NCBI GenBank assembly: GCA_017448825.1
Contig: JAFSKR010000068.1
Coordinates: 62,001-126,000 of the forward strand
DNA length: 64,000 nt
Origin: Bacteroidaceae bacterium
Lineage (GTDB): Bacteria; Bacteroidota; Bacteroidia; Bacteroidales; Bacteroidaceae
Reading direction: 5' to 3'
Under the pieces are notes generated by a model that saw nothing but the letters and a program-made list of their open reading frames with translations, was not told where the DNA came from and did not search any database. Both the position numbers and the translations under genes were made by a program. The number at the start of each line of letters is the position of its first letter. Position 1 is the first letter of the stretch. This document shows positions 12,982 to 35,710 of this stretch, piece by piece.

Positions 12982-13009
12982 TTGCACATTATTTTTTTTC
13001 GTATCTTTG
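12982..13009 (+). promoter_or_regulatory. Promoter for M64 peptidase gene
   Basis: TATCTTTG (13002-13009) matches the -7 consensus TAnnTTTG. TTG (12982-12984) lies 17 bases upstream, slightly short of the usual spacing. The ATG at 13034 is 24 bases downstream, which supports that start over the GTG at 13007 that overlaps the box. Confidence 0.65.
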
Positions 13010-13033
13010 TGGCGAAATCAAAAACTAACCTAT

Positions 13034-17392: not shown

Positions 17393-17421
17393 CAGATAAA
17401 ATGAGTTCTTATATCAAAAGG

Positions 17422-17455
17422 AAGGCATCAGGTATTCTCTGATGCCTTTTGTTTA
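17422..17455 (+). terminator. Rho-independent terminator after glycoside hydrolase
   Basis: A perfect 10-base stem AAGGCATCAG/CTGATGCCTT (17422-17431 and 17439-17448) with a 7-base loop, followed by TTGTTT. It separates the M64/GH128 genes from the FAS1-SusCD operon. Confidence 0.85.
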
Positions 17456-17546: not shown

Positions 17547-17576
17547 TTTGAGTCTTGTCAACTTATGTTATCTTTG
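17547..17576 (+). promoter_or_regulatory. Promoter of the FAS1-SusC/D operon
   Basis: TTTG (17547-17550), 18 bases, then TATCTTTG (17569-17576): a near-perfect Bacteroidetes promoter. It leaves an untranslated leader of about 105 bases before the ATG at 17689. No recognisable regulator-binding repeat was seen between 17456 and 17546. Confidence 0.75.
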
Positions 17577-17688
17577 CAAATGGTTTTTTTGCCTCATCCA
17601 GTGGGATTGGGTATAACTAAATTATGTATTGCGATAGAGGCTAATCACAAGATAATTATACAATAATACTAAACAATATCTAACCTTT

Positions 17689-20652
17689 ATGAACAAACGC
17701 TTTTGTACATTAGGAAAGTATGCCGCTAAGGCTTTCTTCCTATTTGCCATGTGCGGAGCGACTTACTCGTGCAAGGACGACTACACGCTAGATGACACTG
17801 ATCCGTCGTGGTTGGGGTCGAGCATTTACGAGTATCTCGAAAGCCAAGGCAACTACACCAACTTTGTCAAGCTCATCAATGATCTTGGCTACAAGGAGGT
17901 GTTAGCTCGTACAGGTTCGAAAACGCTCTTCGTGGCTAACGATGAGGCTTTCGCAACTTTCTATCAGAGCAACGCATGGGGCGTTCACAGCTACGACCAG
18001 TTGACGCAAAGTCAGAAGAAGCTGCTGTTGAACAGTGCCATGATTAACAATGCTTACCTGCTCGAAATGATGTCGAGCACGGCTGCAGGTAGTGATGAAA
18101 ATGCTCAACCTGACAAAGGACAGGCTTTGCGTCGAGAAACGGCTGCCGATGTGACTGATTCGGTACCTCATCTCTTCGCTGCCGACTTGCCTATCAGTTA
18201 CAATGCTGCTGACAAGGACTATTGGGCACGTTTCCGCAACAATGACAAGGGTATCTACCTTGCCCTTGATGCCACTACTCCGATGATGACTCATTTCCTT
18301 GCAACTCAGTTGGCTAACAAAAGCATCACTGACGAGGATTTTTCTATTATTACAGGGCAGACTCGTGAGAAAACAGATGCTTTCGTTTATGACAGTAAAG
18401 TGCTGGAACAGGATATCACTTGTCAAAATGGCTATATCAACCGTTTGGAGAGAGTGCTTGTCAATCCACAGAATATGGCAGAAGTGTTGCGTACCAATGG
18501 CAATACCAATATCTTTAGCCACATGATTGACCGCTTCTCTGCTCCATTTTACAACTCGACCTTGACGGAACGTTATCGTCTCATTTATGGCAATGCTGTC
18601 GATTCTGTGTTCCAAAAGCGTTATTTCTCTGACCGTTCACAGGGTAACACGACGCTCTATAGCGATGCTGGTACCGACCCCATCGGCAACCCTAACGGCA
18701 ACACCGTATTCGATGATAAATCGAATAAGCCACTTCCCTATGACCCAGGATGGAACACTTACATGACCGACTCAAAGACGGAAAAAGAGCGAGATATGGC
18801 AGCTATTTTCTGTCCGACCGACAAGAAACTCATGGAGTATTTCTTTAGCAGTGAAGGTGGTGGTCGTTTCCTTGTGAAGGCTTATGCTCCTGATTTGTTG
18901 AACCAAATTACGGAAAATACTACAGACCTTGATTTGGTCTATCAAGCTATTGACCAGATTCCGCGTTCTACGATCCGCGCATTGCTCAATAACTTGATGA
19001 AAGAATCATTCATCAGCACTGTGCCCAGCAAGTTCGAAACTATCAAGAACTCGGCTCAGGATGCCATGTTTGATGAGCAGTATGACTATCACCGTGATAA
19101 TATCCTTGGTGTGCTTCTTGCCAACAATGGTGTTATCTATATGATGGATGAAGTGACCACGCCTGCTGAATATGCTGCCGTGTCAGCACCAGCTTACGTG
19201 GAAACAGATAAACACATTTTCAACTGGGCTGTGCAGAGTGCATCGCTGGGTGGCATCCCTACCAACTACTATGCTTACTTGCTCGCCATGAGTTCACGTT
19301 TCTCTTTCTTCGTGCCAAATGATGAAAACTTCTGGTATATCGATCCGTTGTCGTTCTACTCTCCCACAGTGGAAGCCAGTTCGAGTGGGACTGTGCTTAT
19401 CGGTCGTGCCTATAATTACACATGGGACACCACAAATTCGCGCCCACGTGTGGCTTCCTATCAGTATCGTTATGACATCACGACTGGTACTGGGGAAATT
19501 GGGCAGATTGTCTCGACTGAAAATGTTGGCGAGACTTGCTATGGCAACCGCCTCAAAGATATGCTGGAAACTCATACTGTCATTCATGAAGACAATACTG
19601 AAATCACTGGTATTGACGAAACGCAGACTGGTGTGGAATGTGCGCAGCACTATTACATCACCAAGAATAATGCTGTTCTCTACGTGGACAACGCAGAACG
19701 TCGCACAAATGGCATGACGGTGAAGGGTGGATGGCAGATTTATAATAACACAGAGCGTTCCGTAATCGGTTTTGACGACAAGTCTGCACAAACCAATGGA
19801 TATGGTAATGGTTTTGCTTATATGATTGACCAGCCGCTCATCCCTACCATCGAGTCCATTTATTCGGTACTCTACAACAATAGTGATTTCTCTACATTTT
19901 TTGATTTGTGCCAAACCGATGCAGAGGTGTTGAAAGAAATAGGTATCACATCGACAACAGATCAGGCGAAATACACTATTTTTGTTAACAATAAGGGTCT
20001 TCCGTGTTATGACAAGACCACGGGCAACATAGTTAACTCGGCCACCAATGTTCGTTTCTTTAACAATTACCGTTATACTGTTTATGTGCCGACCAATGCT
20101 GCTATGGATGCTGCAAAGGCCGCAGGTTTGCCAACATGGCAAGACATCCGTGATTATCTGGAACTTGATCTGGAGGATGACCAAAAGACGGATCTCACAC
20201 AAGAACAGGAAGATGCCCGCAACTTGAAAGCAAAAGCAATGGTGACAACTATCGTGAATTTTGTGAAGAATCACTTCCAAGACAATTCTGTTTTTGCGGA
20301 TGCTTCACCCGTCGCAGCCACTCAGTATGAAACCGCAACCATTAACAGTGAAACTGGTGTGTATAGCAAAATACAAGTGTCAAGCAGTGGTAACGGATCT
20401 CTTTCAGTGACTGATGCCAATGGTAAGACCTGTAACATCACTAACAATAAGAACATTATTGCACGTGACTATATAACCAATGGCAATTCTAACCCAATCA
20501 GTTGTACCATTACTTCCAGTTCCTCTGCAGTTATCCACGGCATTGATGGGGTGCTTGACTATAAGTCTTATACTGGTGGTCGTTATGATTCTGATTGGGC
20601 GAATGAAGCTAAGGCTCGTGCATATCTGAAACAATATCAATTACTTAAATAA
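17689..20652 (+). CDS. FAS1 (fasciclin) domain lipoprotein, first in operon
   Basis: Large (987-residue) surface lipoprotein; the signal peptide ends at TYSCKDD with a lipidation Cys near residue 28. FAS1-type modules are recognisable by the pattern 'sLFVANDEAF', an adhesion-like fold. One is at about 43-250 (YEYLESQGNYTNFVKLI ... TLFVANDEAF). Probable ones start near 255, near 385 (with RFSFFVPNDENFW near 540) and near 720 (IYSVLYNNSDFSTFF ... YTVYVPTNAAM). FAS1 domains mediate adhesion or ligand binding in other proteins; the ligand here is unknown. It is the first of seven genes, 22 bases ahead of a SusC gene. The repeated insertions between FAS1 signature motifs make exact boundaries uncertain. 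Confidence 0.85.
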   Translation: MNKRFCTLGKYAAKAFFLFAMCGATYSCKDDYTLDDTDPSWLGSSIYEYLESQGNYTNFVKLINDLGYKEVLARTGSKTLFVANDEAFATFYQSNAWGVHSYDQLTQSQKKLLLNSAMINNAYLLEMMSSTAAGSDENAQPDKGQALRRETAADVTDSVPHLFAADLPISYNAADKDYWARFRNNDKGIYLALDATTPMMTHFLATQLANKSITDEDFSIITGQTREKTDAFVYDSKVLEQDITCQNGYINRLERVLVNPQNMAEVLRTNGNTNIFSHMIDRFSAPFYNSTLTERYRLIYGNAVDSVFQKRYFSDRSQGNTTLYSDAGTDPIGNPNGNTVFDDKSNKPLPYDPGWNTYMTDSKTEKERDMAAIFCPTDKKLMEYFFSSEGGGRFLVKAYAPDLLNQITENTTDLDLVYQAIDQIPRSTIRALLNNLMKESFISTVPSKFETIKNSAQDAMFDEQYDYHRDNILGVLLANNGVIYMMDEVTTPAEYAAVSAPAYVETDKHIFNWAVQSASLGGIPTNYYAYLLAMSSRFSFFVPNDENFWYIDPLSFYSPTVEASSSGTVLIGRAYNYTWDTTNSRPRVASYQYRYDITTGTGEIGQIVSTENVGETCYGNRLKDMLETHTVIHEDNTEITGIDETQTGVECAQHYYITKNNAVLYVDNAERRTNGMTVKGGWQIYNNTERSVIGFDDKSAQTNGYGNGFAYMIDQPLIPTIESIYSVLYNNSDFSTFFDLCQTDAEVLKEIGITSTTDQAKYTIFVNNKGLPCYDKTTGNIVNSATNVRFFNNYRYTVYVPTNAAMDAAKAAGLPTWQDIRDYLELDLEDDQKTDLTQEQEDARNLKAKAMVTTIVNFVKNHFQDNSVFADASPVAATQYETATINSETGVYSKIQVSSSGNGSLSVTDANGKTCNITNNKNIIARDYITNGNSNPISCTITSSSSAVIHGIDGVLDYKSYTGGRYDSDWANEAKARAYLKQYQLLK

Positions 20653-20674
20653 CAACTTACATAGAACAAACATT

Positions 20675-23600
20675 ATGAACAAGATTAAATTTATTATTTC
20701 ATCGCTTGTGCTGTTCTTCTGTGTAAGTTCAGCAATGGCGCAGCAGCGGCGTATCACAGGTTATGTTTATGACGACTTGGGCGGCATTATGATGGCGAAT
20801 GTCGTGGAGCGCGATAATAACAACCGTATTGTTGAGCAGGCTGTGACCGATATCAATGGTAACTTCTCAATGGTCATCAAGAATCCTAAGAACAAACTGG
20901 TAGTCAGCTATGTGGGTTATAAGACTTGGAGCCAAGTCATTGGCAACACATCCAAGTTCAATATCCATCTGCAAGACAATACCCAGTTGCAGGAAGTGGT
21001 AGTGAAAGCTAAGCCGATGACACAGAACAATGGTATGTCCATTCCTCTCAAGGAAATCTCTGTAGCCACACAGAAGATGAACATGGACGATGTAGAAGGC
21101 CTTTCTTTTGCATCTGCAGACGAGGCATTACAAGGTAAGATTGCAGGTCTTGATATCATCTCAAACTCAGGAAACCTCGGTTCGGGTACTTCCATGCGTA
21201 TGCGTGGTGTCTCGACTATTAATGGTTCAGCAGAACCACTTATCGTGGTGGATGGTAACATCTTTGACCTGCCAGATGATGTGGCAGATGTGAATTTTGA
21301 AGACCTTGACAATGAGGAGCAGTTTGCCACTCTTCTCTCCGTCAACCCAGAGGACATCAAGGAAATCAATGTCTTGAAGGATGCTGCCGCAACAGCCATT
21401 TGGGGTTCACGTGGTGCAAATGGTGTTATTGAAATCACAACGCGTCGTGGTGTGACAGGTAAGACTAAGATAAACTTCTCTTATCGTTTTACTGGTTCAT
21501 GGGCTCCATCGGGTCTGAATATGCTTGATGGAGATGGGTATACCATGATGCTCAAAGAGGCTTACTTCAATCCGAAACAAAACACTGCTACTTCCGACAT
21601 GGTGGAATTGAATTACGATCAGTCCTATCCAGTACAGTACTACAATTTCAACCGTAACACCGATTGGGTGGACAAAGTGAACCAGTTCGGACAGACCCAT
21701 AATTACTATCTGACGTTGACGGGTGGTGGTGAGAAAGCAAAATTCCGTATATCAGGTGGTTATGACCACCAGACGGGTACCATTATCAAGCAGGTACTTG
21801 ACCGTTTCTCCACACGTTTGGTGTTGGACTATGATGTGTCTGACCGTATCCGTTTCTCAACCAACTTTGCTCTCACTTATACAGATAACCATCGTAATTG
21901 GGACGGTAGTAAGACAACAACCATTTTAGGTAAGGCTTATAATGCCATGCCCAATATGTCTATTTATGAATACGACCAGAATGGCAACCTGACGGGTGAC
22001 TTCTACAAGATGCTGCCCACTAATCCAACACAGTATGCTGGTGGTAACAACTATTACTCGTCTTACTACCTGTCAGATATGAAGAACATTGGCAACCCTG
22101 TTGCCATTGCTCACTTGGCGTTCAGCAATCAATCGACGTATCGTATCAACCCTCAGTTCAACCTCCAATACAAACTATTGTCGAAAGACTCTGAAGGTCA
22201 TCAGTTGAACTTGAATGCCGAGGTCTATATGGATATATATAATGAGTCAGACAATACTTATTATCCCTCAGCTCTTAAAACAGACTCTTGGACAACGGGT
22301 GTGAATGAGACGACGAACTACGAGTATAAGTCCTTGGCTTTCACCAATCGTGAGAAACTCATCTTCATCCCGAAAACCAACTCAGACATTTGGACTGTGA
22401 GTGCACTGGGGCAGTTTGAATTCACCAGCGGTAATGGAACCAATCAATATATTGCTCATAATGGTTTGCCAACGGGATTGGATTCTTCAATAGCAGATGC
22501 TTATCTTACATCATCTACTTCGGGTACCAGCCAATGGCGTAGAGCTTCTATGTTGGGTAGTGTTCATATTGGTATTTACGATGGTCGCTACTCGTTCGAT
22601 GCAACCGTTCGCCGTGATGGTTCCACTAAGTTCGGTGCAGGTCGCAAGTGGGGAACCTTCCCTGGCATCTCAGCACGTTGGAACATCAATCAAGAACCGC
22701 TCTTCGAGAAGTTGATTCAAGCTATCGGTTTGAAGGAAGGTGTTATCTCAATGCTGTCTTTCCGTCCATCTTGGGGTAAGGTGGGGCGTGAACCTGGCTC
22801 TGAATACCTGATGTACAACCGATACAGCAGTTATGGTGTATATGGGTCAGGCAACAGGACGCAGGCCGCTATCTCGCCCGACAACCTCCGTCTGACCGAC
22901 ATTAAGTGGGAAACAACCTCATCTTGGAACCTTGGTGCTAACTTGAACCTTTTCAATGACTTGCTCCAATTCGATTTCAACTACTACAACAAACAGACTA
23001 AAGACTTGTTGATGGAGTCTGTGGGCATCCCAGGCTCGACAGGTTTCGGCTCATTAGCATGGCGAAATGTCGGTGGTATGCGCAACCGTGGTTGGGAACT
23101 TTATATGAATACAGGAAAGTTTTTGAAGAAGGGCAAGTTCTCTATGTCTGTCAGCTTCAATATGGCACAAAACGTGAACACTATCACCGAAATGGATGCA
23201 ACGGTGCTTGCTAGCATGAATGGCGACTATTCCTACAGAAATGCTGACTACCTGAAACGCATTCAAATAGGTAATGCCGTTGGTTCTATATACGGATTCC
23301 GTTATAAGGGTGTTTACCGTTATGACTACGATCACAGCGGTTATACAGAGTTGTCCGCTGCTACATATGGCGACAATACTGCTGCGGCAGCTGAGGCACG
23401 CGGTGAGAATGCTACAGTGCCTGTTGCTCGCGATGCCAATGGTGCTATTCTCTTCGACTCAAAGGGTAACCCACTTCATATGTATTTCAATTATGGCGGT
23501 GTGGGCTACGAGTTCAAGGGTGGTGATGTCATCTACGAAGATGTGAACCACGATGGTCAAATCAACGAGTTGGATATCGTCTATCTTGGCAATTCTAACC

Positions 23601-24097: not shown

Positions 24098-24110
24098 AAT
24101 ATATAGACTC

Positions 24111-26012
24111 ATGAAGAATATCATTAAAAATATAACACTCTGCGGACTCTTTGCTGTCGGTGCAGGAATGGGGTTGTCTTCTTGCGAAGACTTCCTGACC
24201 ATCACTCCCACTGACAAAATTGTGGAGGAAGAGTTCTGGAAAGACAAGAGTGACTTGAACAATGCCATCATGGCATGCTACAAGCGCATGGTCAGCAGCG
24301 ACCTCCTCGAAAAGTACATCTATTGGGGTGAGATGCGTTCTGACAATTTTGAGCGTTCAAGTAGTGTGTCTGCCACAGGTCCAGTGGCGAACATCATGAA
24401 CGCCAACTTGTTGCCCACTTATGGTCAGTTCAGTTGGACTGATATGTACAATGCTATCAACTACTGTAACAAGGTGCTTGTACATGGTCCTGAAGTGATT
24501 GAGGCTGACGAAAGTTTCTCTGCCAATGACTGGAAACCTATTCGTGCAGAAGTTATCACGTTACGTGCTTTGGCACACTTCTATCTGGTGCGTACCTTTG
24601 GCGAAGTGCCTTACATTACACAAGACTACAACAACGACTCTCAAGAACTGCGTGCCGCACAATCCACACAGCTTGCTGTACTTGATAGCATCGTCAATGA
24701 CCTTGAGTCTATCCAGGATGATGCTATGGTAGATTATGGCAACACTGTGGAAAACAAGGGACGTATCACAAAGAAGGCTATTTACGCACTACTTGCTGAT
24801 GTCTATCTTTGGCGTGCTTCTTACAAGGCTGGTGGTAATCAGCCTTTCACGAAGGTGACGTTGACCAGCAACTATGATGGTTTGATGACAGAAACAGAAT
24901 TAACTTCACGTCATGAAGATTATGGAACTTCTGCTGAGTCTGACTATCAAAAGTGCATTGAGTATTGTGATCTTATCATTGACATGGCTTTCCAGGAGAA
25001 AACCGAGTATATCAACAAAAAAGGTCTGAATATAGGAGGTGCAGAGATTGACCTTGAATTGGAAGACCTATTGGAAAGCAATGATGATTCCAATAAGAAA
25101 TATATAACAACGAACTATGCTGCTTATGAGTCGCTCTTTGGTATGGGAAATTCCGATGAATCCATTCTCGAATTCCAAGTGGATGGCATCACCTATAGCA
25201 ACACGATGATAACAGACCTGTTCTGGAACATCAAGGACTCAAAAACTGGTCAGTTGATAGGTGCTACTGCTTTGCTTGAAGGAACGGAAAGTTCGCCTAA
25301 TACGACATCTCCCACTTCACTTTTTACGAAGACCGACTATCGTAAATGGGAAGACTTCCAATTTGAGAAGGTGGGGCAGACGGCTTTCAACATTGGTAAG
25401 TATATCTATCGTAGCGTAGAACAAAGTGTCGGACAGACTTCCCTCTTCCTTACAGACAACGCGGCATCTAATCTGAAAACAGAAATTACTATGCGTACAA
25501 CGAGTAATCTTGACGCAAATTGGATTGTCTATCGTATGTCCGAGATTTTCCTCTTCAAGGCAGAGGCTATGTCGCAACTATATGATGACGAAACAAATTT
25601 GACAGAGGCATTTAAGTATGTACGTGAGGTCTTCAAACGCAGCAATCCTATTGCTTATCAGTCTAACAACCCCTCCAGTACGAAAGACAACGACTCGCTC
25701 AAGTTTGCCAATTTCTCTACTTCAGAGAATATGGAGAAACTGGTGATGACGGAGCGTCAACGTGAATTTGTCGGTGAAGGCAAACGTTGGTATGACCTCG
25801 TGCGCTATGCGCTTCGTCGTGGCAACACTTCCGAAATGTTGTCTCTTCTGTCTCGCAAGTATACGAACAGCAAGTCGATTCAAGCTAAACTTGCTGATAT
25901 GCAATCGCTCTTCTCTCCTGTTTACAATAGCGAAATCAAGAACAACAGCTGGCTTTACCAAAATGGTGTATGGTCAGTCAATGAGACTTCTTCGCGAACA
26001 GATGATATGTAA
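24111..26012 (+). CDS. SusD/RagB-family surface lipoprotein 1
   Basis: Ligand-capturing lipoprotein that caps the preceding SusC barrel. The signal peptide ends LSSCEDF (lipidation Cys near residue 24), followed by the family opening FLTITPTDKIVEEEFWK. The TPR-like helical core includes AEVITLRALAHFYLVRTFGEVPYIT (about 143-167) and AEAMSQL (about 484). The typical C-terminal ERQREFVGEGKRWYDLVRY is near 548-566. The ATG at 24111 is preferred to a TTG at 24087 that overlaps the SusC stop. The protein is 633 residues, rather long for SusD. A 58-base gap precedes the next FAS1 gene. Confidence 0.94.
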   Translation: MKNIIKNITLCGLFAVGAGMGLSSCEDFLTITPTDKIVEEEFWKDKSDLNNAIMACYKRMVSSDLLEKYIYWGEMRSDNFERSSSVSATGPVANIMNANLLPTYGQFSWTDMYNAINYCNKVLVHGPEVIEADESFSANDWKPIRAEVITLRALAHFYLVRTFGEVPYITQDYNNDSQELRAAQSTQLAVLDSIVNDLESIQDDAMVDYGNTVENKGRITKKAIYALLADVYLWRASYKAGGNQPFTKVTLTSNYDGLMTETELTSRHEDYGTSAESDYQKCIEYCDLIIDMAFQEKTEYINKKGLNIGGAEIDLELEDLLESNDDSNKKYITTNYAAYESLFGMGNSDESILEFQVDGITYSNTMITDLFWNIKDSKTGQLIGATALLEGTESSPNTTSPTSLFTKTDYRKWEDFQFEKVGQTAFNIGKYIYRSVEQSVGQTSLFLTDNAASNLKTEITMRTTSNLDANWIVYRMSEIFLFKAEAMSQLYDDETNLTEAFKYVREVFKRSNPIAYQSNNPSSTKDNDSLKFANFSTSENMEKLVMTERQREFVGEGKRWYDLVRYALRRGNTSEMLSLLSRKYTNSKSIQAKLADMQSLFSPVYNSEIKNNSWLYQNGVWSVNETSSRTDDM

Positions 26013-26070
26013 AATGAAGTATAAAGAAGGAAGAATCATCAGACATTCCTAATTTCTAATTCAAAGAAAC

Positions 26071-28167
26071 ATGAAACTTATTAAGAATATCAAGAATTAT
26101 TGTGGTGTGGCACTGCTCATCGGTGCTGCTGCCACGGTAACGCTGAACTCTTGTTCGGAGAATATCGATGAATCAGACCTCTACACTTTCACAGGGGAGA
26201 TGATGATTGACCACTTCGAGAACAACCCTGAGACTTTCAGCAGTTACCTTACTATACTTGGCAAGGTACATCCCAGCAAGCGTTCTACTTCCACAATGAA
26301 GGAATTGCTTGCTGCTCGAGGACACTACACTTGTTTTGCCCCAACCAACGAGGCCATTCAGATGTATCTCGATTCTCTCTACTCTATTGGCCAACTTGAA
26401 AGCAATCAGCTGGAGCAAATTAGTGACTCTGTGGCAGAAGCACTCGTTTTCAACTCTATCGTACAGAATGGTGACAACGAGGCGTACGCTACGACAGACT
26501 TTGAAGAAGGTGCCCTTGGAACCACCAACATGAATGACCGTTACATTGACATTTCTTATAGTAACGATTCACTCAACAACACCATTATTTACGTCAATGT
26601 TCATTCACGTATCATTGATGGTGATATAGAGGTAGAAAATGGTTTCATTCATACTATTGACAAAGTGCTCTCTCCGTCCAATGTGTCGGTGGCGGACCTT
26701 GTCATTAACGCTGAAAACACAACGTTCTTCGGAAGCTTGCTCCAGATGACTGGATGGGATGTGAAACTTCAGGCATATAAGGACGAAGTTTGGGAAGAAA
26801 AGTACGATGATGTGCGTGGTACACAATACACCCATGGTTCATGGACTGGAATGTTCCCTAACCATCGTTACATCGGTTATACCATTTTCGTTGAGCCCGA
26901 CTCTGTTTATGCTGCGAATGGTATCAACAGCGTGGAAGATTTGAAGGAATGGCTTCAGAACCATGCTTACTACAATGACGATACGAGTGGACATACAGAA
27001 CCAAGCTATGGTGACGATTACGACAGTGAAGACAATGCCATTAATCAATTTGTCAGCTACCACCTTTTGCCAGAACGTCTTACTTTCGACAAATTGGTGA
27101 CTTTCGCTAATGAATATGGTTGCTCCGCGGGAACCATGAAGAACCGTACAGCTACCCAGTTCTACGTTAATGTATGGGAATATTGGGAAACGATGGGAAA
27201 ACAGCGCCGTTCAGTCAAGGTGACAGGTCTGCGAGGTGAAAAGCGTCTCAATCGCGTTTCTGTTTATAATCTTACCACTTATCGTGAGCGTTCTTCGGAA
27301 ATAACGATTCCAGGTATCAAAATTAATTCTAACAATGGTTCTTACAACAACCAAGCTCTGAACGGCTACTACTATCCCATTGATGACATCCTCGTATGGA
27401 ATAGTGATGTCCCAACTAAGGTGTTGAACGAACGTATGCGTTATGATGTCACATCCCTCTTCCCAGAGATGCTGACCAATGGTATTCGTCAGAACCGAAA
27501 TACAGATGAGTGTGCTCAAGGATATTGGTATTTGATGAACGATAAAGTGGAATCCTATATTGACAATGTGGTGGCAGTATCCAAAGAAACACAGTTCATC
27601 TACCTTCCTAACCAAGGTTATTCTGGTGGTAGTAATTCATGGATGAATTATCAGATTGACGAATTTAACATTCAAGGTATTTTCGACTTCACCATGAAAC
27701 TCCCTCCTGTACCTTATACGGGTACATACGAACTTCGTTACGGTATCAATGCTAATGATAACCGAGGCATGGCACAGGTTTATCTTGGAACAAATAAGGA
27801 CAATCTTCCTGCCATTGGCATTCCACTTGATCTCCGTTCTTCCTCTGGTACCAATCCTACGGCTACAGGATGGGTGAGCGACACTTCGTTAGGCGATGAA
27901 GAAGCCATCAACGAAAATGATAAGGCGATGCGTAACCTTGGCTTTATGAAAGGACCTAAATATGTTCAACTTGCCAGCTCAACCAACCGCGATGAACAGA
28001 ATGCCCTCCGTAAAATAATCTACACAGGGCAGTTTGAGGCTGGAAAAACTTATTATATCCGCTTTAAGTCAGTACTTTCTGGTACGACCTATGAGTTCTT
28101 CTACGATTATCTTGAACTTGTGCCAAAATCCGTCTATGCAGGCGATGAAGCTGAAGACAAGTGGTAA
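26071..28167 (+). CDS. FAS1 (fasciclin) domain lipoprotein, second
   Basis: 698-residue lipoprotein with signal peptide ending TLNSCSEN. The first FAS1 module (about 38-190) shows HYTCFAPTNEAIQMYLDSL and closes with NGFIHTIDKVLSPS, a classical FAS1 ending. A second module (about 210-350) has YTIFVEPDSVY. The C-terminal 300 residues form a beta-rich domain without recognised motifs, including WYLMNDKVESYIDNVV and PYTGTYELRYGIN; the latter suggests a jelly-roll-like binding domain. Adhesion or glycan/protein binding at the cell surface is inferred from the fold and operon only. The next FAS1 gene follows after 84 bases that contain a small hairpin. Confidence 0.85.
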   Translation: MKLIKNIKNYCGVALLIGAAATVTLNSCSENIDESDLYTFTGEMMIDHFENNPETFSSYLTILGKVHPSKRSTSTMKELLAARGHYTCFAPTNEAIQMYLDSLYSIGQLESNQLEQISDSVAEALVFNSIVQNGDNEAYATTDFEEGALGTTNMNDRYIDISYSNDSLNNTIIYVNVHSRIIDGDIEVENGFIHTIDKVLSPSNVSVADLVINAENTTFFGSLLQMTGWDVKLQAYKDEVWEEKYDDVRGTQYTHGSWTGMFPNHRYIGYTIFVEPDSVYAANGINSVEDLKEWLQNHAYYNDDTSGHTEPSYGDDYDSEDNAINQFVSYHLLPERLTFDKLVTFANEYGCSAGTMKNRTATQFYVNVWEYWETMGKQRRSVKVTGLRGEKRLNRVSVYNLTTYRERSSEITIPGIKINSNNGSYNNQALNGYYYPIDDILVWNSDVPTKVLNERMRYDVTSLFPEMLTNGIRQNRNTDECAQGYWYLMNDKVESYIDNVVAVSKETQFIYLPNQGYSGGSNSWMNYQIDEFNIQGIFDFTMKLPPVPYTGTYELRYGINANDNRGMAQVYLGTNKDNLPAIGIPLDLRSSSGTNPTATGWVSDTSLGDEEAINENDKAMRNLGFMKGPKYVQLASSTNRDEQNALRKIIYTGQFEAGKTYYIRFKSVLSGTTYEFFYDYLELVPKSVYAGDEAEDKW

Positions 28168-28206
28168 TCATCTAACAGTCCTAAAGAAATTAATAAGTCT
28201 ATAGAA

Positions 28207-28228
28207 TCTGGATTTTTCATCATCCAGA
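28207..28228 (+). promoter_or_regulatory. Intercistronic hairpin between two FAS1 genes
   Basis: TCTGGAT (28207-28213) and ATCCAGA (28222-28228) form a perfect 7-base stem with an 8-base loop. It lies 23 bases before the next ATG and lacks a T tract, so it is not a clear terminator. It could protect or partly attenuate the long transcript. Confidence 0.4.
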
Positions 28229-28251
28229 AAACCTATAAAATCAGAACAATA

Positions 28252-30123
28252 ATGAATAAGAATAAAATCTATAAATGGTTAACTGGGTCGGTGATGACAG
28301 CAGTGCTTACTGCTGGTATCAGTGCCTGCTCCGACGACCATTTCGACATCTCCTCTGATGCTGCTGGCAAGCAGACACTCTGGCAGAACATTCAGTCAAA
28401 GGAGCAGCTCAGTGAGTATGCTGACATTCTGCAGAGTGTTTATTACTCGCAGACCGAGGAGAAGACCACTCCAGAGACCTATGCCAGCCTCTTCGATGGT
28501 GACCAGACTTTCACTGTTTGGGCACCTGTCAATGGCTCTTTCCGTTATAGCTACTATAAAGACTTGCTCAAGTCTGGTATTCGTGATAGTATCTATAAAG
28601 TGGAGAAAGAACTCATTCGCAATAACATGACGCGCTATAGCCATGTTGTCATGGGGTCTGACTCTGTGAAATTGGATCTCTTCAACAGCAAGGCGGCTTG
28701 GCTCAACAACAAGAATCAGACTATCAAGGGTGTATCCATCACAACTCCGAATGTGGGTGCTTCCAATGGTGTGCTTCACATCACAGCCTCTGCGATGGAA
28801 TATCAGCCCAATCTCTATGAGTACCTCGCTTCTCGTCGTGATCTTGACTCCATCAATGCCTTCATCAAGGGTTTCCAAACCATTGAGTTCAATGAAAATG
28901 CTTCCACACAAGGTCCCACTATTGATGGACAAATCACATGGGTGGATTCTATCACATACGTTTCAAATGACTATACCAGATTGTTCATGGGTGCGTTTCT
29001 TGAACGAGAAGATTCTAACTATGTAATGATTATTCCGACCAATGATACTTGGCGTACAAACATAGAGAAGACAAAAAAGTATTTCAATTTCAAAAGTTCT
29101 TACAAGCAGGATATTTACACGCAGACGGAAGCTGGTGCTGATACCACCATTTCAGGTGTAGAAACCACTTTCACTACTGCTGAAATAGATTCCCTAATAA
29201 ATCTCTTCTCAAAAAACGCTATATCAGGAAACTTGGCATTCAATGCCAATTGGCAGTACGAGCAGATTCCTATTACCAGCATTGCTGATATTCGTGCAGT
29301 CGATGCTCGTCGTGACTCACTTTGTTCCACTGCAGGCACCAAGTTTAAGAAGCTTGGTACACTGAATGCCACGAATAAGAATGAAGTGGTTGAAGTGGAT
29401 GATTTCGCGGCCATGTTTGGTAATGCCGATCCTGTTGAGGTAAGCAATGGCTATGCTTATGTTGTAGATGAATTTAAGCTCCCAACGACAGTCTATGCTC
29501 CTAATATGGATCTCATTCCATATCGCAATTATGAATCTTGTGATAACCAATGTGTTGTTTCCAACGTGAATTGGGAGTATCAGACAAGTGTTGTTTTGCG
29601 TGATACGGTAACTAATGAAATTATCGCTCAACGCGATAGTACTTATAAGTACACCTACTTCATCATGGGTAATAAGACTTCAACTTCCCATCCTGGAGCA
29701 TTCTTTAAGTTGCCCAATGTGCTTTCTTGCAAATACGATATATATGTAGTTATTGGCTACAACACTGACTATAACTTGCAGAACAAGTTCCGTGCATACA
29801 TATCGTATGATACAGAAGACAAGCGTTTCAACAATGAAGCGTTGAAGAATCCGAATGAAGATGCCCTTGATGCCAAAGGAGAAAGCCTGTTCGAAGGCAA
29901 CTACTTCGTTAACAAGCAGCCAGCCTTGGATGAAAACCTTTGTGTCAATTATACAGATACTATCTGCCTTGCCAAGGACTTCGAGTTCCCTGTTTCTTAC
30001 TATGGTCTTACAAACGCCTACCCAGTCCTTCAGCTCAAGAGCAATTTCACTTCGTCTGAACGTAATTATTACTCTCGTGAAATCTGGGTAAACGCAATCA
30101 TTTTGAAAGCAAAAGAATGGTAA
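28252..30123 (+). CDS. FAS1 (fasciclin) domain lipoprotein, third
   Basis: 623-residue lipoprotein; the signal peptide ends ISACSDDHFD with the lipidation Cys near residue 26. The first FAS1 module (about 40-190) contains QTFTVWAPVNGSF and GVLHITASAMEY. The second (about 190-440) contains YVMIIPTNDTW and ends GYAYVVDEFKLP. The last 180 residues (from about 445) are beta-rich, with tyrosine-rich segments such as KYDIYVVIGYNTDYN. It sits 24 bases upstream of the second SusC gene and therefore probably works with that transporter pair. The function is unknown beyond a predicted surface adhesive or binding role. Confidence 0.83.
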   Translation: MNKNKIYKWLTGSVMTAVLTAGISACSDDHFDISSDAAGKQTLWQNIQSKEQLSEYADILQSVYYSQTEEKTTPETYASLFDGDQTFTVWAPVNGSFRYSYYKDLLKSGIRDSIYKVEKELIRNNMTRYSHVVMGSDSVKLDLFNSKAAWLNNKNQTIKGVSITTPNVGASNGVLHITASAMEYQPNLYEYLASRRDLDSINAFIKGFQTIEFNENASTQGPTIDGQITWVDSITYVSNDYTRLFMGAFLEREDSNYVMIIPTNDTWRTNIEKTKKYFNFKSSYKQDIYTQTEAGADTTISGVETTFTTAEIDSLINLFSKNAISGNLAFNANWQYEQIPITSIADIRAVDARRDSLCSTAGTKFKKLGTLNATNKNEVVEVDDFAAMFGNADPVEVSNGYAYVVDEFKLPTTVYAPNMDLIPYRNYESCDNQCVVSNVNWEYQTSVVLRDTVTNEIIAQRDSTYKYTYFIMGNKTSTSHPGAFFKLPNVLSCKYDIYVVIGYNTDYNLQNKFRAYISYDTEDKRFNNEALKNPNEDALDAKGESLFEGNYFVNKQPALDENLCVNYTDTICLAKDFEFPVSYYGLTNAYPVLQLKSNFTSSERNYYSREIWVNAIILKAKEW

Positions 30124-30147
30124 AAACTCCTAAATAACAACAAAGAC

Positions 30148-33100
30148 ATGAAAAATCAGATTATTCACACAGGCTTACTTCGCCTCGGTATTGGTCTCAT
30201 GATGTTATCAGGAGCTACTACCGTATTTGCGCAAGAAGCCGAAGAAGCACCGGTCAAACCAGCCAGGACTCAAAAGGAAAAGGCACCAGTTTATGAGATG
30301 AAGGAGGTGAGTGGCTACGTTTATGATGCTGCCACGAAAACCCCTCTTGATGGTGCAAAAGTACAGGCATACGGCAACAGCCGTTACTCTGTTATGACGG
30401 GTGAGGATGGCAAATACACGCTTAAGGTGCCCGTCTTCATCAATTCACTCTATGTCACTGTGCCCGAATACAACGACGTGCAGGTCAGCTTCGATGGGTT
30501 GACGGCACCCTCCGTCGGACTTTACAGTGACAAGTTTAATGCTGTTTATTCCGCCACTACAAGTATCACATCCAGTGCCAAGACGGAACTTAACAACACT
30601 TCTGCTATCGTGGTGGACGAAGAGATTGATGCTAAGTTAGCAGGCGATATCTACACCATCAACCGTACAGGATTGAGAGGACAAGGTGTGGCCATGTTTA
30701 TCCGAGGACTCAACTCGCTCAACATCAATGCTCAGCCACTCATCATCCTCGATGGCATGATGATGGATGCACAACTTGACCGTACCAGCATTCACGATGG
30801 GTTCTTCAACAATATTCTTGCAGGCATCGACCCCGAGGACATCGAATCCGTGGAAGTGTTGAAAAATGCCACCTCGCTTTATGGTTCACGAGGCGGCAAT
30901 GGAGTTGTCATCATCAACACCAAGCGTGGTCACTCAATGGCAACAAAAATAAATGCCAGCATCAATGCAGGTTTCGAGTTGTCGCCTTCAGTTACTAAGA
31001 TGATGAATGCCAGCCAGTACCGCAACTTCGTTAGTGACCTCATTGGTACTACGGAATATGGCTCTGAGCACTCCACAGCCAGCACGTCCATTCCCTTCCT
31101 CAACAACAACTCGACGTACTACTGGTATCCTATGTATCACAATAATACTGATTGGTCTGATGGCCTCTATCGTACAGCCGCTACCCAGAACTACAAGGTG
31201 AACGTGCAAGGTGGTGACGATGTAGCCATGTACAACCTCTCATTAGGTTATACCAACTCACAGTCAACTGTTAAAGAGAATGGCTTCGACCGTTTGAACA
31301 TCCGTTTCAACACCGACATCAAGCTTATCAAGAGCCTCTCCACTCAACTTGACCTTTCCTACTCCAAATTCTCCAACAACCTGAGAGACAACGGTTGGGC
31401 AGAGTCATATGCTGCAAGCACCGTTTCTTCCCCCAACGTGCTTGGTCTCATCCAGGCCCCATTCCTCTCAAAGTATGGATACTACACGGGTGAAGACGGA
31501 AAACTGCACCTATCATCAGTCTATGCGGGCAAATATGTTGACGACGATAACTATCCATTCAACTTTGCGTCTGCATACGGAACCAACGCAGCTCTAGCCA
31601 ACCCTTACTGGATTCTCCAGAACGGTGATGGCGACAACAAGAACCGTCAAGAGGTTACCCAGTTCAACCTCAACATCATGCCCAAGTGGGAAATCAATAA
31701 GCATCTCAATTTGACCAACCGCTTCTCATATCAACTTAATCGTTCCAACGAGAAGTATTATTTGCCAGAGGCTGGTATTCCCATCTTCAACTATGAAGGT
31801 TATGGTGATGTGACCTCTGTGGTCAAGTCGCTTTTCTCCAAGGAGACCTCTATTTATGAAGACTTCCGTATCAATTGGTCTGCCAACTATGGTATGCATG
31901 ATGTAATGGCTTTTGGTGGACTTCGCTTCACCAGCAACAGTTTCTCTGATTCCTACATGCGTTCTTACAATACAGGCAACGACAAGATGCCCAATATGTC
32001 CAACTCCAACGATTTCCGTTCTGTTGAGGGTAATCAAGATTCATGGAACAATCTCGCGTACTATGTACAGGGACGTTGGACAGTTAAGAACACATATATT
32101 CTTGAAGGGACGCTCTCTGCCGAAACCTCATCGCGCTTTGGCAAAAAGGCAGAAGAAGGCATTAAGCTCTTTGGTGTGAAGTGGGGTATCTTCCCAAGCA
32201 TTCAGGCAGGTTGGGTTATCTCCAACGAACCTTGGATGCAAAAGGTTCATGCCATCAATTATCTCAAATTGACAGCTGGTTACGATGAGTCAGGTAACGA
32301 CAACATCGATTATGCCGCTTCACGCACTTACTTCAAGTCCTATACCTTCCTAAAGACAGCCACAGCCCTGCAACTCGCAAACATTGAGAATCCCGCCATT
32401 CAGTGGGAGACCACTCGTCGTTGGAACATTGCGCTTAACGGTTCGTTCTTTAACAACCGCATACAGGCAGGAGCTGACTTCTACATCTCTAACACTGACA
32501 ATCTTGTCACCTACAAGACTATCAATTATCTGTCAGGTCTTGCTGGCTACCTGTGCAATGGTGGTTCACTCCGCAACATCGGTGTTGATGTGAAAGCCAA
32601 CGCCATCCTCATCAACAGCAAGGACTTCAAGTGGCAACTCGGCGCAACGATGGGACACTATAAGAACAAACTCACCTCGTTGCCTGAAGACAACTACACC
32701 CAGAAAATTTACGGTGCTGAGGTGATCACCGCTGTGGGCAATCCCGTAGGTCTCTTCTATGGTTACAAGACTGCTGGTGTCTTCTCCACCGATGCAGAGG
32801 CTTCATCAGCCACCACTGCTACGGCCGACGGTTATCTGAAGTATCCCACAGGCATCACAAAGAATCCATATCGTAATTTCTCTGCAGGCGATGTCCACTT
32901 TGTTGACCAAGATGGAAATGGCATTATTGATGAAAACGATAGGACTGTCATTGGTGACCCCAACCCCAGCATCTTTGGAAACTTCTACACGAATCTTTCT
33001 TACAAGAAATGGAGCCTTGACATCAGTTTCAAGTACTCCGTTGGTGGCGATATATACAATTACCAGCGTAGCCAACTCGAATCGCTCAACACGTTCTACA

Positions 33101-33462
33101 ACCAATCGACTGCAGCAGTTAACCGTTGGACTTACGACGGTGACAATGCCCAGTTGCCACGTGTCATGTCAGAGGACTCTGAAAGTTGGGTGGACAACGA
33201 ACGTTTCTCTGACCGTTGGATAGAAAATGGCTCTTACCTCAAACTCAAGAAGGTACGTCTTTCTTATGAGTTGCCCATCAATGCGTCATGGATTCAGGGA
33301 CTTACTATCTGGGCTGAGGCTAACAACCTCGTCACTCTTACTAAATATACAGGTAAGGATCCAGAGTTCTCTTGTGGCAATGGCGTGCTCTATCAGGGCA
33401 TCGATGCAGGTTTGCTTCCAAGCAATCGCTCATTTAACCTTGGTCTTAAAATCAATTTGTAA
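30148..33462 (+). CDS. SusC/RagA-family TonB-linked outer-membrane receptor 2
   Basis: 1104-residue TonB-dependent barrel, clearly divergent from the first SusC in this operon. The signal peptide ends FAQ (about residue 28). A short Glu/Pro/Lys-rich spacer follows (about 30-50), then a carboxypeptidase-regulatory-like domain (VSGYVYDAATKTPLDGAKV, about 53-72). The plug carries GLRGQGVAMFIRGLNSLN, PLIILDGMMMDAQ and SLYGSRGGNGVVIINTKRG (about 250-268). The barrel ends LGLKINL, so it lacks the usual final Phe. SusD-2 starts 12 bases after the stop. Together they form the second importer of the locus; the substrate is unknown. Confidence 0.94.
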   Translation: MKNQIIHTGLLRLGIGLMMLSGATTVFAQEAEEAPVKPARTQKEKAPVYEMKEVSGYVYDAATKTPLDGAKVQAYGNSRYSVMTGEDGKYTLKVPVFINSLYVTVPEYNDVQVSFDGLTAPSVGLYSDKFNAVYSATTSITSSAKTELNNTSAIVVDEEIDAKLAGDIYTINRTGLRGQGVAMFIRGLNSLNINAQPLIILDGMMMDAQLDRTSIHDGFFNNILAGIDPEDIESVEVLKNATSLYGSRGGNGVVIINTKRGHSMATKINASINAGFELSPSVTKMMNASQYRNFVSDLIGTTEYGSEHSTASTSIPFLNNNSTYYWYPMYHNNTDWSDGLYRTAATQNYKVNVQGGDDVAMYNLSLGYTNSQSTVKENGFDRLNIRFNTDIKLIKSLSTQLDLSYSKFSNNLRDNGWAESYAASTVSSPNVLGLIQAPFLSKYGYYTGEDGKLHLSSVYAGKYVDDDNYPFNFASAYGTNAALANPYWILQNGDGDNKNRQEVTQFNLNIMPKWEINKHLNLTNRFSYQLNRSNEKYYLPEAGIPIFNYEGYGDVTSVVKSLFSKETSIYEDFRINWSANYGMHDVMAFGGLRFTSNSFSDSYMRSYNTGNDKMPNMSNSNDFRSVEGNQDSWNNLAYYVQGRWTVKNTYILEGTLSAETSSRFGKKAEEGIKLFGVKWGIFPSIQAGWVISNEPWMQKVHAINYLKLTAGYDESGNDNIDYAASRTYFKSYTFLKTATALQLANIENPAIQWETTRRWNIALNGSFFNNRIQAGADFYISNTDNLVTYKTINYLSGLAGYLCNGGSLRNIGVDVKANAILINSKDFKWQLGATMGHYKNKLTSLPEDNYTQKIYGAEVITAVGNPVGLFYGYKTAGVFSTDAEASSATTATADGYLKYPTGITKNPYRNFSAGDVHFVDQDGNGIIDENDRTVIGDPNPSIFGNFYTNLSYKKWSLDISFKYSVGGDIYNYQRSQLESLNTFYNQSTAAVNRWTYDGDNAQLPRVMSEDSESWVDNERFSDRWIENGSYLKLKKVRLSYELPINASWIQGLTIWAEANNLVTLTKYTGKDPEFSCGNGVLYQGIDAGLLPSNRSFNLGLKINL

Positions 33463-33474
33463 TACGTAACAATC

Positions 33475-35613
33475 ATGAAGAATATATTCAAACATATCGC
33501 CATTGCGTCAGTTGTTGCCACAGGACTGGTGGCAACCTCCTGCGAGGACATGATGACCATCGACACTGGTGACAAGGCATACACGAATGCACAAGACACC
33601 CTCTATTCCTACCTTGGCATTATGCGTGCCATGCAGGATGTGGCAGAGCGTCAGGTTATTCTTGGCGAAATTCGTGGTGACCTTGTGGTCTCTACTGACT
33701 ACACCACTGATACGCTTTATGCTATTTCTAATTTTGATAATCCAAAGGATCAGTCATGTTCCATGTTGCAAGTGTCCGACTACTACAATGTCATCAACAA
33801 CTGCAATTTCTACATTCACAACGCCGATACTGCGGCTGTGAAGTCTAACATCAAGTATATGGTGCCAGAGTATGCGCAGGTCAAGGCCATTCGTGCATGG
33901 GCATACCTCCAGCTCGTCAAGAACTATAAGGAAGTGCCCTATATCACAGAACCTATCAGCAACCTCGGTGTTATAGATAACTTCGATTATGCTAACAATC
34001 TTGTCAACAAAGACAATTTGGTGGACAAACTTATCGAAGACGGGCTGCTCGATTTTGTTGAGACCGATTATCCGCAGTACGGTTCTGCATCCGACCCTCA
34101 AGGACGTTGGGAGAATGGCTATACTGATATAGCAGCTCGGCTGATGATGATTCCCATTCGCGTTGTGCTTGGCGACCTCTACCTCTTGCGTGGAGCCTCC
34201 ACCAGCGACTATGAGAAAGCTGCACAATACTATTTTGATTATTTGAAGAATGAGACGACACCGCTCTATCAACAATTCTGTGGTGTGTTAGAACTTCGTA
34301 CGGGCAATCGTAACTACATTAATTTCAATGGCTGGGGCACATGGGCTGCCACCTATAATTATTCGGCATCGACAAATGAAGTGATATCACTTATTCCAAG
34401 TTCTGCCAATGCAGGTCTTGGCAAGATGCTGACCCGTGTGGCAGACATCTACGGATATACCCCCACGTCCTCACAGTCTTCCGATGTCAACACCTCCACG
34501 GATGATGACGGAAACACCAGCAATTCTACCGATGCCAACGGCAACGAGACCTATTCCTCCTCTGGTGCCATTACTGTTACCCGTAACTATCGCCGTCAAT
34601 ATGGTCCTTCCAATGCATTCCAAGACGTGGTCAACCAACAGACCTATGTCAGCTACACTGGGCTTAGCACCAATTTGTCGGTCTCCTACGTCGAGAACTG
34701 CGATGCCCGCTATGGATTATCTGTTGAGGACTATTCTTATGAGGGTGAGGGCTATCCTCTCTGTTGTAAGGCTGCCTCTGGTTCCTCTTTCTACTATACC
34801 ATTCCCACCTATCGCAAGACTCTCATTTGGCTCCGCATGGCTGAAGCCATCAACCGTGCTGGCTATCCAGAATTTGCCTTTGCCATTCTCAAGGATGGTA
34901 TCAACCAATACACCCTCCCCGAGGTGGTGGAGCGCTACGACCTCGAGGCACGTCTTGATGCCAATGGCGACTCTATCCCCGTATGGAACAGCGATTCCAC
35001 CAAAATCCTGCGTTACGAGATGGACACTATTTATTATAAGGAACTCGACTACGGTACCTATGGAGCCATGTACTACGTGACCGACTCTGCCCGTCTGGCC
35101 AAGTTCAATACCTTCCTGAACTTCAAAGACGAAATATGGAATGCAACTTATGGCATCCATGCTAAGGGTGCAGGTTGTGCACAGTACATCACAGGAAACA
35201 GAGCCTCGTTTTGGTCATCAGCCGATCAAGGTGCTGTTACTACCAGCATTGGTGGCTATCGTGACTCCATTTACTACGACTACTCCAAACTGTTGCTCAA
35301 ACAAGGTATCGTTCTTGGTACAGCTTCGCAAGAGGATGTCATCAATGCTGTCGAGAACATCATCGTCGATGAGTTGGCACTTGAGACGGCCTTTGAAGGC
35401 AACCGCTTTACCGACCTTGTCCGCATCGCTGAGCACAAGACCGCCTCTGGCTACGATGGCATCGAGTGGCTCGCCCAGAAGATTGCCAACCGAGGCACCA
35501 AGGCAGCCACCAACACCGCTGCTGCCGTTGATGGCTACGATGCCGACATATATTCAAAGCTGAAGAACACAGCCAACTGGTACTTTGCTCTTCCTGCTTG
35601 GACGACCAAGTGA
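33475..35613 (+). CDS. SusD/RagB-family surface lipoprotein 2
   Basis: 712-residue lipoprotein partner of SusC-2. The signal peptide ends ATSCEDM (lipidation Cys near residue 23). SusD landmarks are QVKAIRAWAYLQLVKNYKEVPYIT (about 138-161), LIWLRMAEAINRAGYPEFA and, near the C-terminus, ELALETAFEGNRFTDLVRIAEH. An insertion at about residues 329-364 is almost entirely Ser/Thr/Asn/Asp with DDDGN and DANGN elements; this is not usual in SusD and may be a flexible or metal-binding loop. It is the last gene of the operon, with a strong terminator 53 bases downstream. Confidence 0.93.
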   Translation: MKNIFKHIAIASVVATGLVATSCEDMMTIDTGDKAYTNAQDTLYSYLGIMRAMQDVAERQVILGEIRGDLVVSTDYTTDTLYAISNFDNPKDQSCSMLQVSDYYNVINNCNFYIHNADTAAVKSNIKYMVPEYAQVKAIRAWAYLQLVKNYKEVPYITEPISNLGVIDNFDYANNLVNKDNLVDKLIEDGLLDFVETDYPQYGSASDPQGRWENGYTDIAARLMMIPIRVVLGDLYLLRGASTSDYEKAAQYYFDYLKNETTPLYQQFCGVLELRTGNRNYINFNGWGTWAATYNYSASTNEVISLIPSSANAGLGKMLTRVADIYGYTPTSSQSSDVNTSTDDDGNTSNSTDANGNETYSSSGAITVTRNYRRQYGPSNAFQDVVNQQTYVSYTGLSTNLSVSYVENCDARYGLSVEDYSYEGEGYPLCCKAASGSSFYYTIPTYRKTLIWLRMAEAINRAGYPEFAFAILKDGINQYTLPEVVERYDLEARLDANGDSIPVWNSDSTKILRYEMDTIYYKELDYGTYGAMYYVTDSARLAKFNTFLNFKDEIWNATYGIHAKGAGCAQYITGNRASFWSSADQGAVTTSIGGYRDSIYYDYSKLLLKQGIVLGTASQEDVINAVENIIVDELALETAFEGNRFTDLVRIAEHKTASGYDGIEWLAQKIANRGTKAATNTAAAVDGYDADIYSKLKNTANWYFALPAWTTK

Positions 35614-35665
35614 GAGCATTGACAGTGCTTTTCCATTGTAAGCTTCATGCTTGCAAGGATACGCT

Positions 35666-35710
35666 AAGAACCTCCGAAGTCTATATGGGACTCTCGGAGG
35701 TTCTTTTTTT
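35666..35710 (+). terminator. Strong rho-independent terminator of the FAS1-SusC/D operon
   Basis: A perfect 12-base stem AAGAACCTCCGA/TCGGAGGTTCTT (35666-35677 and 35694-35705), extended by an inner AGTC/GACT pairing, runs into a T tract to 35710. It marks the end of an approximately 18-kb transcript. Confidence 0.92.

What the first reader, a model, noticed from the sequence alone, without database searches (positions are those of the whole stretch)
17547..35710. Enzyme-free 18-kb operon of three FAS1 lipoproteins and two SusC/SusD importers
Seen: one promoter and one terminator bound seven genes in the order FAS1-SusC-SusD-FAS1-FAS1-SusC-SusD. Intergenic gaps are 12-84 bases and there is no enzyme, regulator or transporter for inner-membrane uptake. 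Known: SusC/D pairs import large ligands, and FAS1 domains bind or adhere in other organisms. Inference: the three FAS1 lipoproteins may be surface receptors or scaffolds for a ligand not degraded at the surface, such as a protein or a peptide-linked glycan. This may be an undescribed uptake or adhesion machine.
Basis: partly seen in the sequence, partly recalled or inferred. Interest (0 to 1): 0.7.

Follow-up and report, generated by a model that had tools for sequence, protein, structure and literature searches.

The report
Conserved seven-gene FAS1 sugar importer
Seven genes that keep the same order in distantly related Bacteroidia encode two SusC/SusD outer-membrane importers and three predicted surface lipoproteins with FAS1 domains, a set that likely captures and imports sugar chains released from plant polysaccharides.

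Summary
In detail: seven genes (17689-35613), FAS1-SusC-SusD-FAS1-FAS1-SusC-SusD, lie between a Bacteroides-type promoter motif and a strong terminator. It is not a one-off. A second full copy lies in the same genome. Of 110 distinct loci fetched through their FAS1 genes, 69 have the same order, 3 have the middle FAS1 gene at the front, 9 lack only that gene, 14 are truncated and consistent, and 15 are FAS1 genes without SusC/D. Six loci from outside the order also match, with F1 22-24% identical to the nearest reference.

"Enzyme-free" is true of the transcript but misleading for the locus. A GH128-type glycosidase gene (14510-17392) lies directly upstream, and a relative is seen there in 18 of 25 orthologous loci. 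Other copies sit beside GH43, GH67, GH10 or PL11/GH28/GH115. F1 is modelled as four FAS1 domains, F2 as two plus a carbohydrate-binding-like jelly roll. Among solved structures both SusCs are nearest to the dextran-utilisome SusC.

I read it as a glycan-uptake module (a utilisome variant) with FAS1 lipoproteins as surface binding or scaffold subunits. Ligand and assembly are untested. The papers searched hold no description. New variant of a known kind.

The parts
17547..17576 (+). promoter motif TTTG-N18-TATCTTTG
   Evidence: sequence, pattern; consensus recalled, activity not tested
17689..20652 (+). F1: predicted surface lipoprotein (C-KDD), four FAS1 domains in the model, 987 aa
20675..24097 (+). 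C1: SusC/RagA TonB-dependent transporter, 1140 aa
   Evidence: TIGR04056 658.6 bits; nearest solved chain 8aa4
24108..26012 (+). D1: SusD-family lipoprotein, 634 aa
   Evidence: PF14322 and PF07980 over cut-off
26071..28167 (+). F2: lipoprotein, two FAS1 domains (41-204, 205-445) plus carbohydrate-binding-like jelly roll (453-690), 698 aa
28252..30123 (+). F3: predicted surface lipoprotein (C-SDD), one FAS1 domain recognised (80-178), 623 aa
   Evidence: export motif read from the sequence
30148..33462 (+). C2: SusC/RagA TonB-dependent transporter, 1104 aa
   Evidence: TIGR04056 586.7 bits; nearest solved chain 8aa4
33475..35613 (+). D2: divergent SusD-family lipoprotein, 712 aa
35666..35705 (+). 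intrinsic terminator of the operon (hairpin followed by T run)
   Evidence: -25.2 kcal/mol, z -5.6
14510..17392 (+). GH128-type glycosidase with H-type-lectin-like region, 960 aa; conserved upstream neighbour with its own terminator-like hairpin
17420..17450 (+). terminator-like hairpin between the glycosidase gene and the operon

Best explanation
The seven genes form one conserved module, F1-C1-D1-F2-F3-C2-D2, that likely captures oligosaccharides of plant polysaccharides at the cell surface and imports them across the outer membrane. Shown: gene order, families, FAS1 folds in the models of F1 and F2, lipoprotein signals, and the neighbouring glycosidase gene. Inferred: a secreted or surface enzyme (here of the GH128 type) cuts the polysaccharide. 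FAS1 lipoproteins F1 and F3 sit on the SusC rims as fixed binding or scaffold subunits. F2, which carries the carbohydrate-binding-like domain and is the one part that moves or is missing, holds the chain. SusD1 and SusD2 act as lids, and SusC1 and SusC2 take in the fragments by TonB-driven transport. Two different SusC/D pairs would serve two fragment types, such as backbone and side chain, of one polysaccharide.
For: Order: 69 of 110 distinct loci canonical, 3 with F2 first, 9 without F2, 14 truncated and consistent; six loci from outside the order keep it, with F1 22-24% identical to the nearest reference. Co-inheritance r 0.90-0.97 over 71 units.

Surface signal, by a script heuristic: lipobox in 42/42 F1, 45/45 F2, 39/41 F3, 44/45 D1, 38/38 D2; an acidic residue at +2..+4 in 39/42, 44/45, 39/41, 44/45, 38/38. 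The window's F1 (C-KDD) and F3 (C-SDD) fit the export signals K-(D/E)2 and CS(D/E)2 of PMC6222051 (passages).

Glycan context: GH128-type relative directly upstream in 18 of 25 orthologous loci with >=1 kb seen. GH43 upstream in 5 of 5 scanned units of a second lineage (lineage checked). PL11, GH28 and GH115 upstream and an esterase and GH97 downstream of L176; GH67 upstream of L161; GH10 downstream of and a weak CBM6 match upstream of L183; GH43 at L182; GH30 at L168. Nearest solved SusC is 8aa4 for both, E 1e-92 and 4e-87, against 1e-35 and 7e-39 for RagA; 8AA4 is the dextran utilisome (PMC7618045 passages).
Against: In 7 of 25 orthologous loci no GH128 relative was seen upstream (flanks of 1.0-1.7 kb). 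In the closest relative (93% identical F2) a sensor kinase gene is there instead, and in another an RmuC gene. The window genome's second copy has a thioredoxin-fold protein and an AraC regulator upstream, not a recognised glycosidase. Many neighbours scanned matched nothing or a family not known to act on carbohydrates: nothing for L106, L110, L170, L191 and the partial ORFs of L175, L176 and L177 (upstream), HpiC1-like in L105, DUF1846 in L107, PPDK_N in L136/L137, CotH in L112. The C-terminal domain of F2 is at least as conserved as its FAS1 domains (mean identity 46.0 against 45.2 and 36.3%; 29 of 238 columns >=95%), which fits a docking role as well as a sugar site. FAS1 domains elsewhere are best known for adhesion (recalled). 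By prediction the glycosidase is not in the same transcript.
Confidence: 0.7

Rival explanations
1. Peptide, protein or glycoprotein importer: the SusC/D pairs take up peptides in the manner of RagAB and the FAS1 proteins are protein receptors; the neighbouring glycosidases are incidental.
For: FAS1 domains bind proteins in animals (recalled); an M64 peptidase gene lies two genes upstream (13007-14461); several copies have no recognised glycosidase next to them.
Against: Recurrent glycosidase neighbours that differ by lineage; carbohydrate-binding-like domain in F2; both SusCs score far closer to glycan SusCs than to RagA or BT2264.
Confidence: 0.13
2. Two ordinary SusC/D glycan importers that are merely co-transcribed; the FAS1 proteins are ordinary surface glycan-binding proteins, each serving its own pair, with no joint assembly.
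For: Tandem SusC/D pairs are known in xylan PULs (PMC4855328, PMC11784079; passages). No physical contact was shown here.
Against: Strict order with a FAS1 gene (F3) between the pairs in all 81 complete loci, and F2 as the only part that moves or is lost, suggest more than co-transcription, but do not prove contact.
Confidence: 0.35
3. Adhesion machine: the FAS1 lipoproteins stick the cell to plant fibre or neighbouring cells, and import is secondary.
For: F1 is built like TGFBIp and periostin, four FAS1 domains in a row.
Against: F1 and F3 come with two complete SusC/D pairs in all 81 complete loci, although 15 fetched loci hold FAS1 genes without SusC/D; glycosidase neighbours.
Confidence: 0.1

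Closest known systems
Levan and dextran utilisomes of Bacteroides thetaiotaomicron (PMC7618045)
   Same: SusC/D core with extra surface lipoproteins, one of them binding glycan through a C-terminal domain; among solved chains both SusCs here are nearest to dextran SusC 8AA4.
   Different: Here three FAS1 lipoproteins, two different SusC/D pairs in one operon and no glycosidase in the transcript. The passages read describe Ig-like and levan-binding domains in the levan protein, and the main text has no 'fasciclin' or 'FAS1'.
Xylan PULs with tandem SusC/SusD pairs (Bacteroides xylanisolvens PUL 43, Segatella copri PUL17)
   Same: Two SusC/D pairs together in one polysaccharide locus (PMC4855328, PMC11784079; passages).
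   Different: 'FAS1' and 'fasciclin' do not occur in the main text of the S. copri paper; in those passages the glycosidases are listed as part of the PUL.
Gramella GH5/GH9/GH26 PUL with a FAS1 gene (PMC4891872)
   Same: The legend of one polysaccharide-locus figure lists a FAS1-domain gene and a SusD-like gene (section 19 read).
   Different: The section does not discuss the FAS1 gene; gene order was not checked here.
TGFBIp / periostin FAS1 proteins
   Same: Tandem FAS1 fold.
   Different: Animal matrix proteins (recalled); here lipoproteins in an import operon.
GH128 endo-beta-1,3-glucanases (6uaq group)
   Same: Profile of the upstream gene matches at E 1.3e-14, with two invariant glutamates, E279 (NEP) and E374 (SEW).
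   Different: 960 aa with further regions; activity untested; the family number and its activity are recalled (the entries are titled Glyco_hydro_cc).

Membership tests
SusC/SusD transporter pairs | SusC of the TIGR04056 subfamily | tested here: met
   658.6 and 586.7 bits, cut-off 368
SusC/SusD transporter pairs | SusD-family lipoprotein beside each SusC | tested here: met
   D1 over both Pfam cut-offs. D2 itself 20.9 bits, below 23.1; 28 of 28 alignment members match PF07980 at E<=0.01
FAS1 (Fasciclin, PF02469) | FAS1 domain by profile | tested here: met
   F1 and F2 over cut-off; F3 below it (20.0 of 22), with 31 of 35 alignment members at E<=0.01
FAS1 (Fasciclin, PF02469) | FAS1 fold in a predicted structure | tested here: met
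Polysaccharide utilisation locus (PUL) | SusC/D pair co-located with carbohydrate-active enzymes | tested here: met
   GH128-type gene directly upstream; a relative there in 18 of 25 orthologous loci; other enzymes at other copies
Polysaccharide utilisation locus (PUL) | linked regulator | tested here: inconclusive
   none seen next to the window's operon (translations read by eye; for two upstream genes); AraC near the second copy, a Reg_prop sensor at L174
Polysaccharide utilisation locus (PUL) | induction by, and growth on, a polysaccharide | not testable with these tools
   needs a culture
Utilisome | stable outer-membrane complex of SusC/D with surface lipoproteins and enzyme | not testable with these tools
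   no complex prediction or biochemistry available
GH128 glycosidase (upstream gene) | catalytic core with two catalytic glutamates | tested here: met
   profile match to 6uaq, E 1.3e-14; E279 and E374 invariant in 35 sequences; PF11790 in 9 of 35 members but not in the window's own protein

The most novel reading that the evidence does not exclude
An undescribed class of outer-membrane utilisome: two different SusC/D transporters joined by FAS1 lipoproteins into one mixed surface assembly. F1 and F3 are fixed braces and F2 is an exchangeable chain-grabbing arm that some genomes keep in many copies elsewhere. The assembly is paired with different surface enzymes to suit different plant polysaccharides, and is used across Bacteroidia.
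Probability: 0.4. Interest if true: 0.85.

Novelty: new variant of a known kind. Interest (0 to 1): 0.72.

Why it matters
In the GTDB family Bacteroidaceae, 236 of 349 sampled genomes, in 18 of 30 genera, have an F1 match at E<=1e-10 (a few are weak, 1e-11 to 1e-19). Single genomes can hold several units: three in G303, two in the window's own. This would therefore be a common glycan-import route in herbivore-gut bacteria, and the literature searches found no description of it. It would also give bacterial FAS1 domains a concrete job and raise a testable structural question: can two different SusC/D pairs share one complex? Annotation would benefit too, since the sources that name these proteins mostly say "fasciclin domain-containing protein".

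Tried and rejected
Chance or annotation artefact: rejected by the order census. Truly enzyme-free importer: rejected for the locus. F3 not being FAS1 (below the Pfam cut-off): rejected by 31 of 35 alignment members and hhalign probability 97.8 against F2. Promoter as a strictly conserved feature: only weak, 9 of 72. Generic promoter/terminator scan: no more sites than shuffles. PADLOC and PHROGs libraries were not run. No ARAGORN tRNA in the window.
Full report
WHAT IS THERE. I call them F1 (17689-20652), C1, D1, F2, F3, C2 and D2 (to 35613). C1 and C2 are SusC/RagA transporters. D1 is a SusD. D2 is a divergent SusD: the window's protein is just below the Pfam cut-off, while 28 of 28 alignment members match PF07980 at E<=0.01. 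F1 and F2 are over the Fasciclin cut-off and F3 just below it; 31 of 35 members of the F3 alignment match at E<=0.01, and profile comparison ties F3 and F1 to F2 (hhalign probabilities 97.8 and 98.0). A TTTG-N18-TATCTTTG promoter motif starts at 17547 and a strong terminator hairpin ends the unit.

IT IS A RECURRING MODULE. The window's own genome has a second full seven-gene copy on another contig. Position by position it is 33, 49, 35, 31, 25, 44 and 28% identical; C1 of the window is nearer to C1 of the second copy (49%) than to its own C2 (27%). So the block is old as a block. I fetched part of the loci matched by F1 or F2 in the genus, family and order and classified 110 distinct ones: 69 canonical; 3 with F2 moved to the front (L210, L214, L215); 9 with everything but F2; 14 cut by a contig or fetch end and consistent as far as they go; 13 with F2-like genes alone; and 2 with FAS1 genes and no SusC/D. 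No locus with SusC/D genes contradicts the order. In the 60 canonical loci of an earlier count (one of them a repeat) the 360 gaps have a median of 18 bases and a maximum of 224. The pairwise distances of the seven proteins correlate at r 0.90-0.97 over 71 units; shared ancestry alone contributes to this.

DISTRIBUTION. F1 is found in 236 of 349 genomes of the GTDB family, in 18 of 30 genera (E<=1e-10, a few weak). In the order it is in 15 of 393 genomes (E<=1e-20), 13 of them in nine other families. In the phylum sample it is in 7 of 395, six of them outside the order. Those six loci (families f122 and f124) keep F1-C1-D1-F2-F3-C2, with F1 22-24% identical to the nearest reference unit, and five show D2 or its start too; the sixth ends at the fetch limit after C2. 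A profile from these six F1 proteins found F1 in 8 of 395 genomes of the class (E<=1e-30; the window's genome was not among them). So the module is old or widely transferred, common in Bacteroidaceae and patchy elsewhere. The window's genus is Candidatus Minthosoma (GTDB UBA4334): a genome of the same genus, G021, carries a contig with the same length and match coordinates as one of Ca. M. caballi (genus from PMC8957277 passages). Records named are MAGs, from rumens, horse faeces and other herbivore guts where the title tells. The only organism named among the 120 listed hits to G303's F1 is a Prevotella sp. MAG, 70% identical, so its genus (g6) is probably Prevotella or close to it.

THE MISSING ENZYME IS NEXT DOOR. 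The gene at 14510-17392 is followed by its own terminator-like hairpin. By itself it has no Pfam match at E<=0.01, but its alignment profile finds Glyco_hydro_cc enzymes in the PDB (6uaq, E 1.3e-14), and two glutamates in NEP and SEW motifs are invariant in 35 sequences. H_lectin matches 27 and PF11790 9 of the 35 members. Of 31 distinct orthologous loci (F2 at least 53% identical), 25 showed at least 1 kb upstream of F1, and 18 of these 25 had a relative of this gene directly upstream, same strand (BLASTX E<=1e-3). The seven without it include the nearest relative, where a sensor kinase sits there. BLAST also finds relatives upstream in three loci of other families (L203, L206, L208; 24-27% identity) and downstream in L177 (PF11790 E 4.6e-17). 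A second lineage of units has a GH43 protein instead, in 5 of 5 scanned (L075 placed in it; a sixth, at L114, was not scanned). Others sit beside PL11, GH28 and GH115 with an esterase and GH97 behind (L176), GH67 (L161), GH10 and a weak CBM6 match (L183), GH43 (L182) or GH30 (L168). Against this, many neighbours scanned are unrecognised or of other kinds.

F2 IS THE EXCHANGEABLE PART. In the census it is the only member that moves or is absent. Genome G054 has a six-gene unit without F2 (L187) and eleven F2 matches. The eight of those places I fetched (L061-L068) hold F2 without SusC/D by BLAST. Of seven neighbouring proteins scanned there, three are glycosidases (Pfam Glyco_hydro_2, Melibiase_2 with CBM6, Glyco_hydro_106), one is CotH and three match nothing.

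HOW IT LIKELY WORKS. Among solved chains both SusCs are closest to the dextran-utilisome SusC (8AA4; identity of the entry from PMC7618045 passages). In that work SusC/D dimers carry a glycosidase and a glycan-binding lipoprotein on their rim. I infer the same plan here, with F1 and F3 as fixed rim lipoproteins, F2 as the binding arm and a separately transcribed enzyme. The ligand would differ by copy: perhaps beta-1,3-glucan for the GH128 lineage, and pectin or xylan fragments elsewhere. None of this is tested.

NOVELTY. Searches for fasciclin or FAS1 with SusC, SusD, TonB, PUL, Bacteroides thetaiotaomicron and Prevotella and for tandem SusC/D in Prevotella (listing of 20 of 37) found no description of the unit. 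The nearest is a Gramella PUL whose figure legend lists a FAS1 gene (PMC4891872, section 19 read). Of PMC10199937 and PMC7661554 only passages were seen; they name FAS1 or fasciclin proteins as adhesins. The library holds only open-licence papers, so subscription papers are not covered.

Noticed in passing
L004:5734-17170 and on into L005:3104 (G000 contig C6): A complete second copy of the seven-gene unit in the window's genome, with an AraC regulator and a 797-aa thioredoxin-fold protein upstream, and a Big_2/dockerin protein and a GDSL-family protein downstream.
   Followed up: yes
L061-L068 (genome G054): Eight of eleven F2 matches in one genome were fetched; none lies with SusC/D by BLAST, and several are next to glycosidases or to 1400-1600-aa proteins without Pfam hits.
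   Followed up: partly
window 14510-17392: A large family (1863 database proteins at E<=0.001) of GH128-type proteins with an H-type-lectin-like region and, by eye, a sorting-domain-like tail that NCBIfam did not match.
   Followed up: partly
window 13007-14461: M64 (IgA-peptidase family) protein gene next to the GH128-type gene; whether it belongs with the module was not tested.
   Followed up: no
L136:332-3343 and L137:349-3375: A protein of about 1000 aa with a PPDK_N ATP-binding domain downstream of two units of one lineage.
   Followed up: no
L200 (genome G472): Two F1-like genes flank a 1457-aa ORF of unknown kind just before a unit without F2.
   Followed up: no
L080 and L100 (genome G022): A homologue of the second copy's thioredoxin-fold protein lies directly downstream of this genome's window-type unit.
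   Followed up: partly
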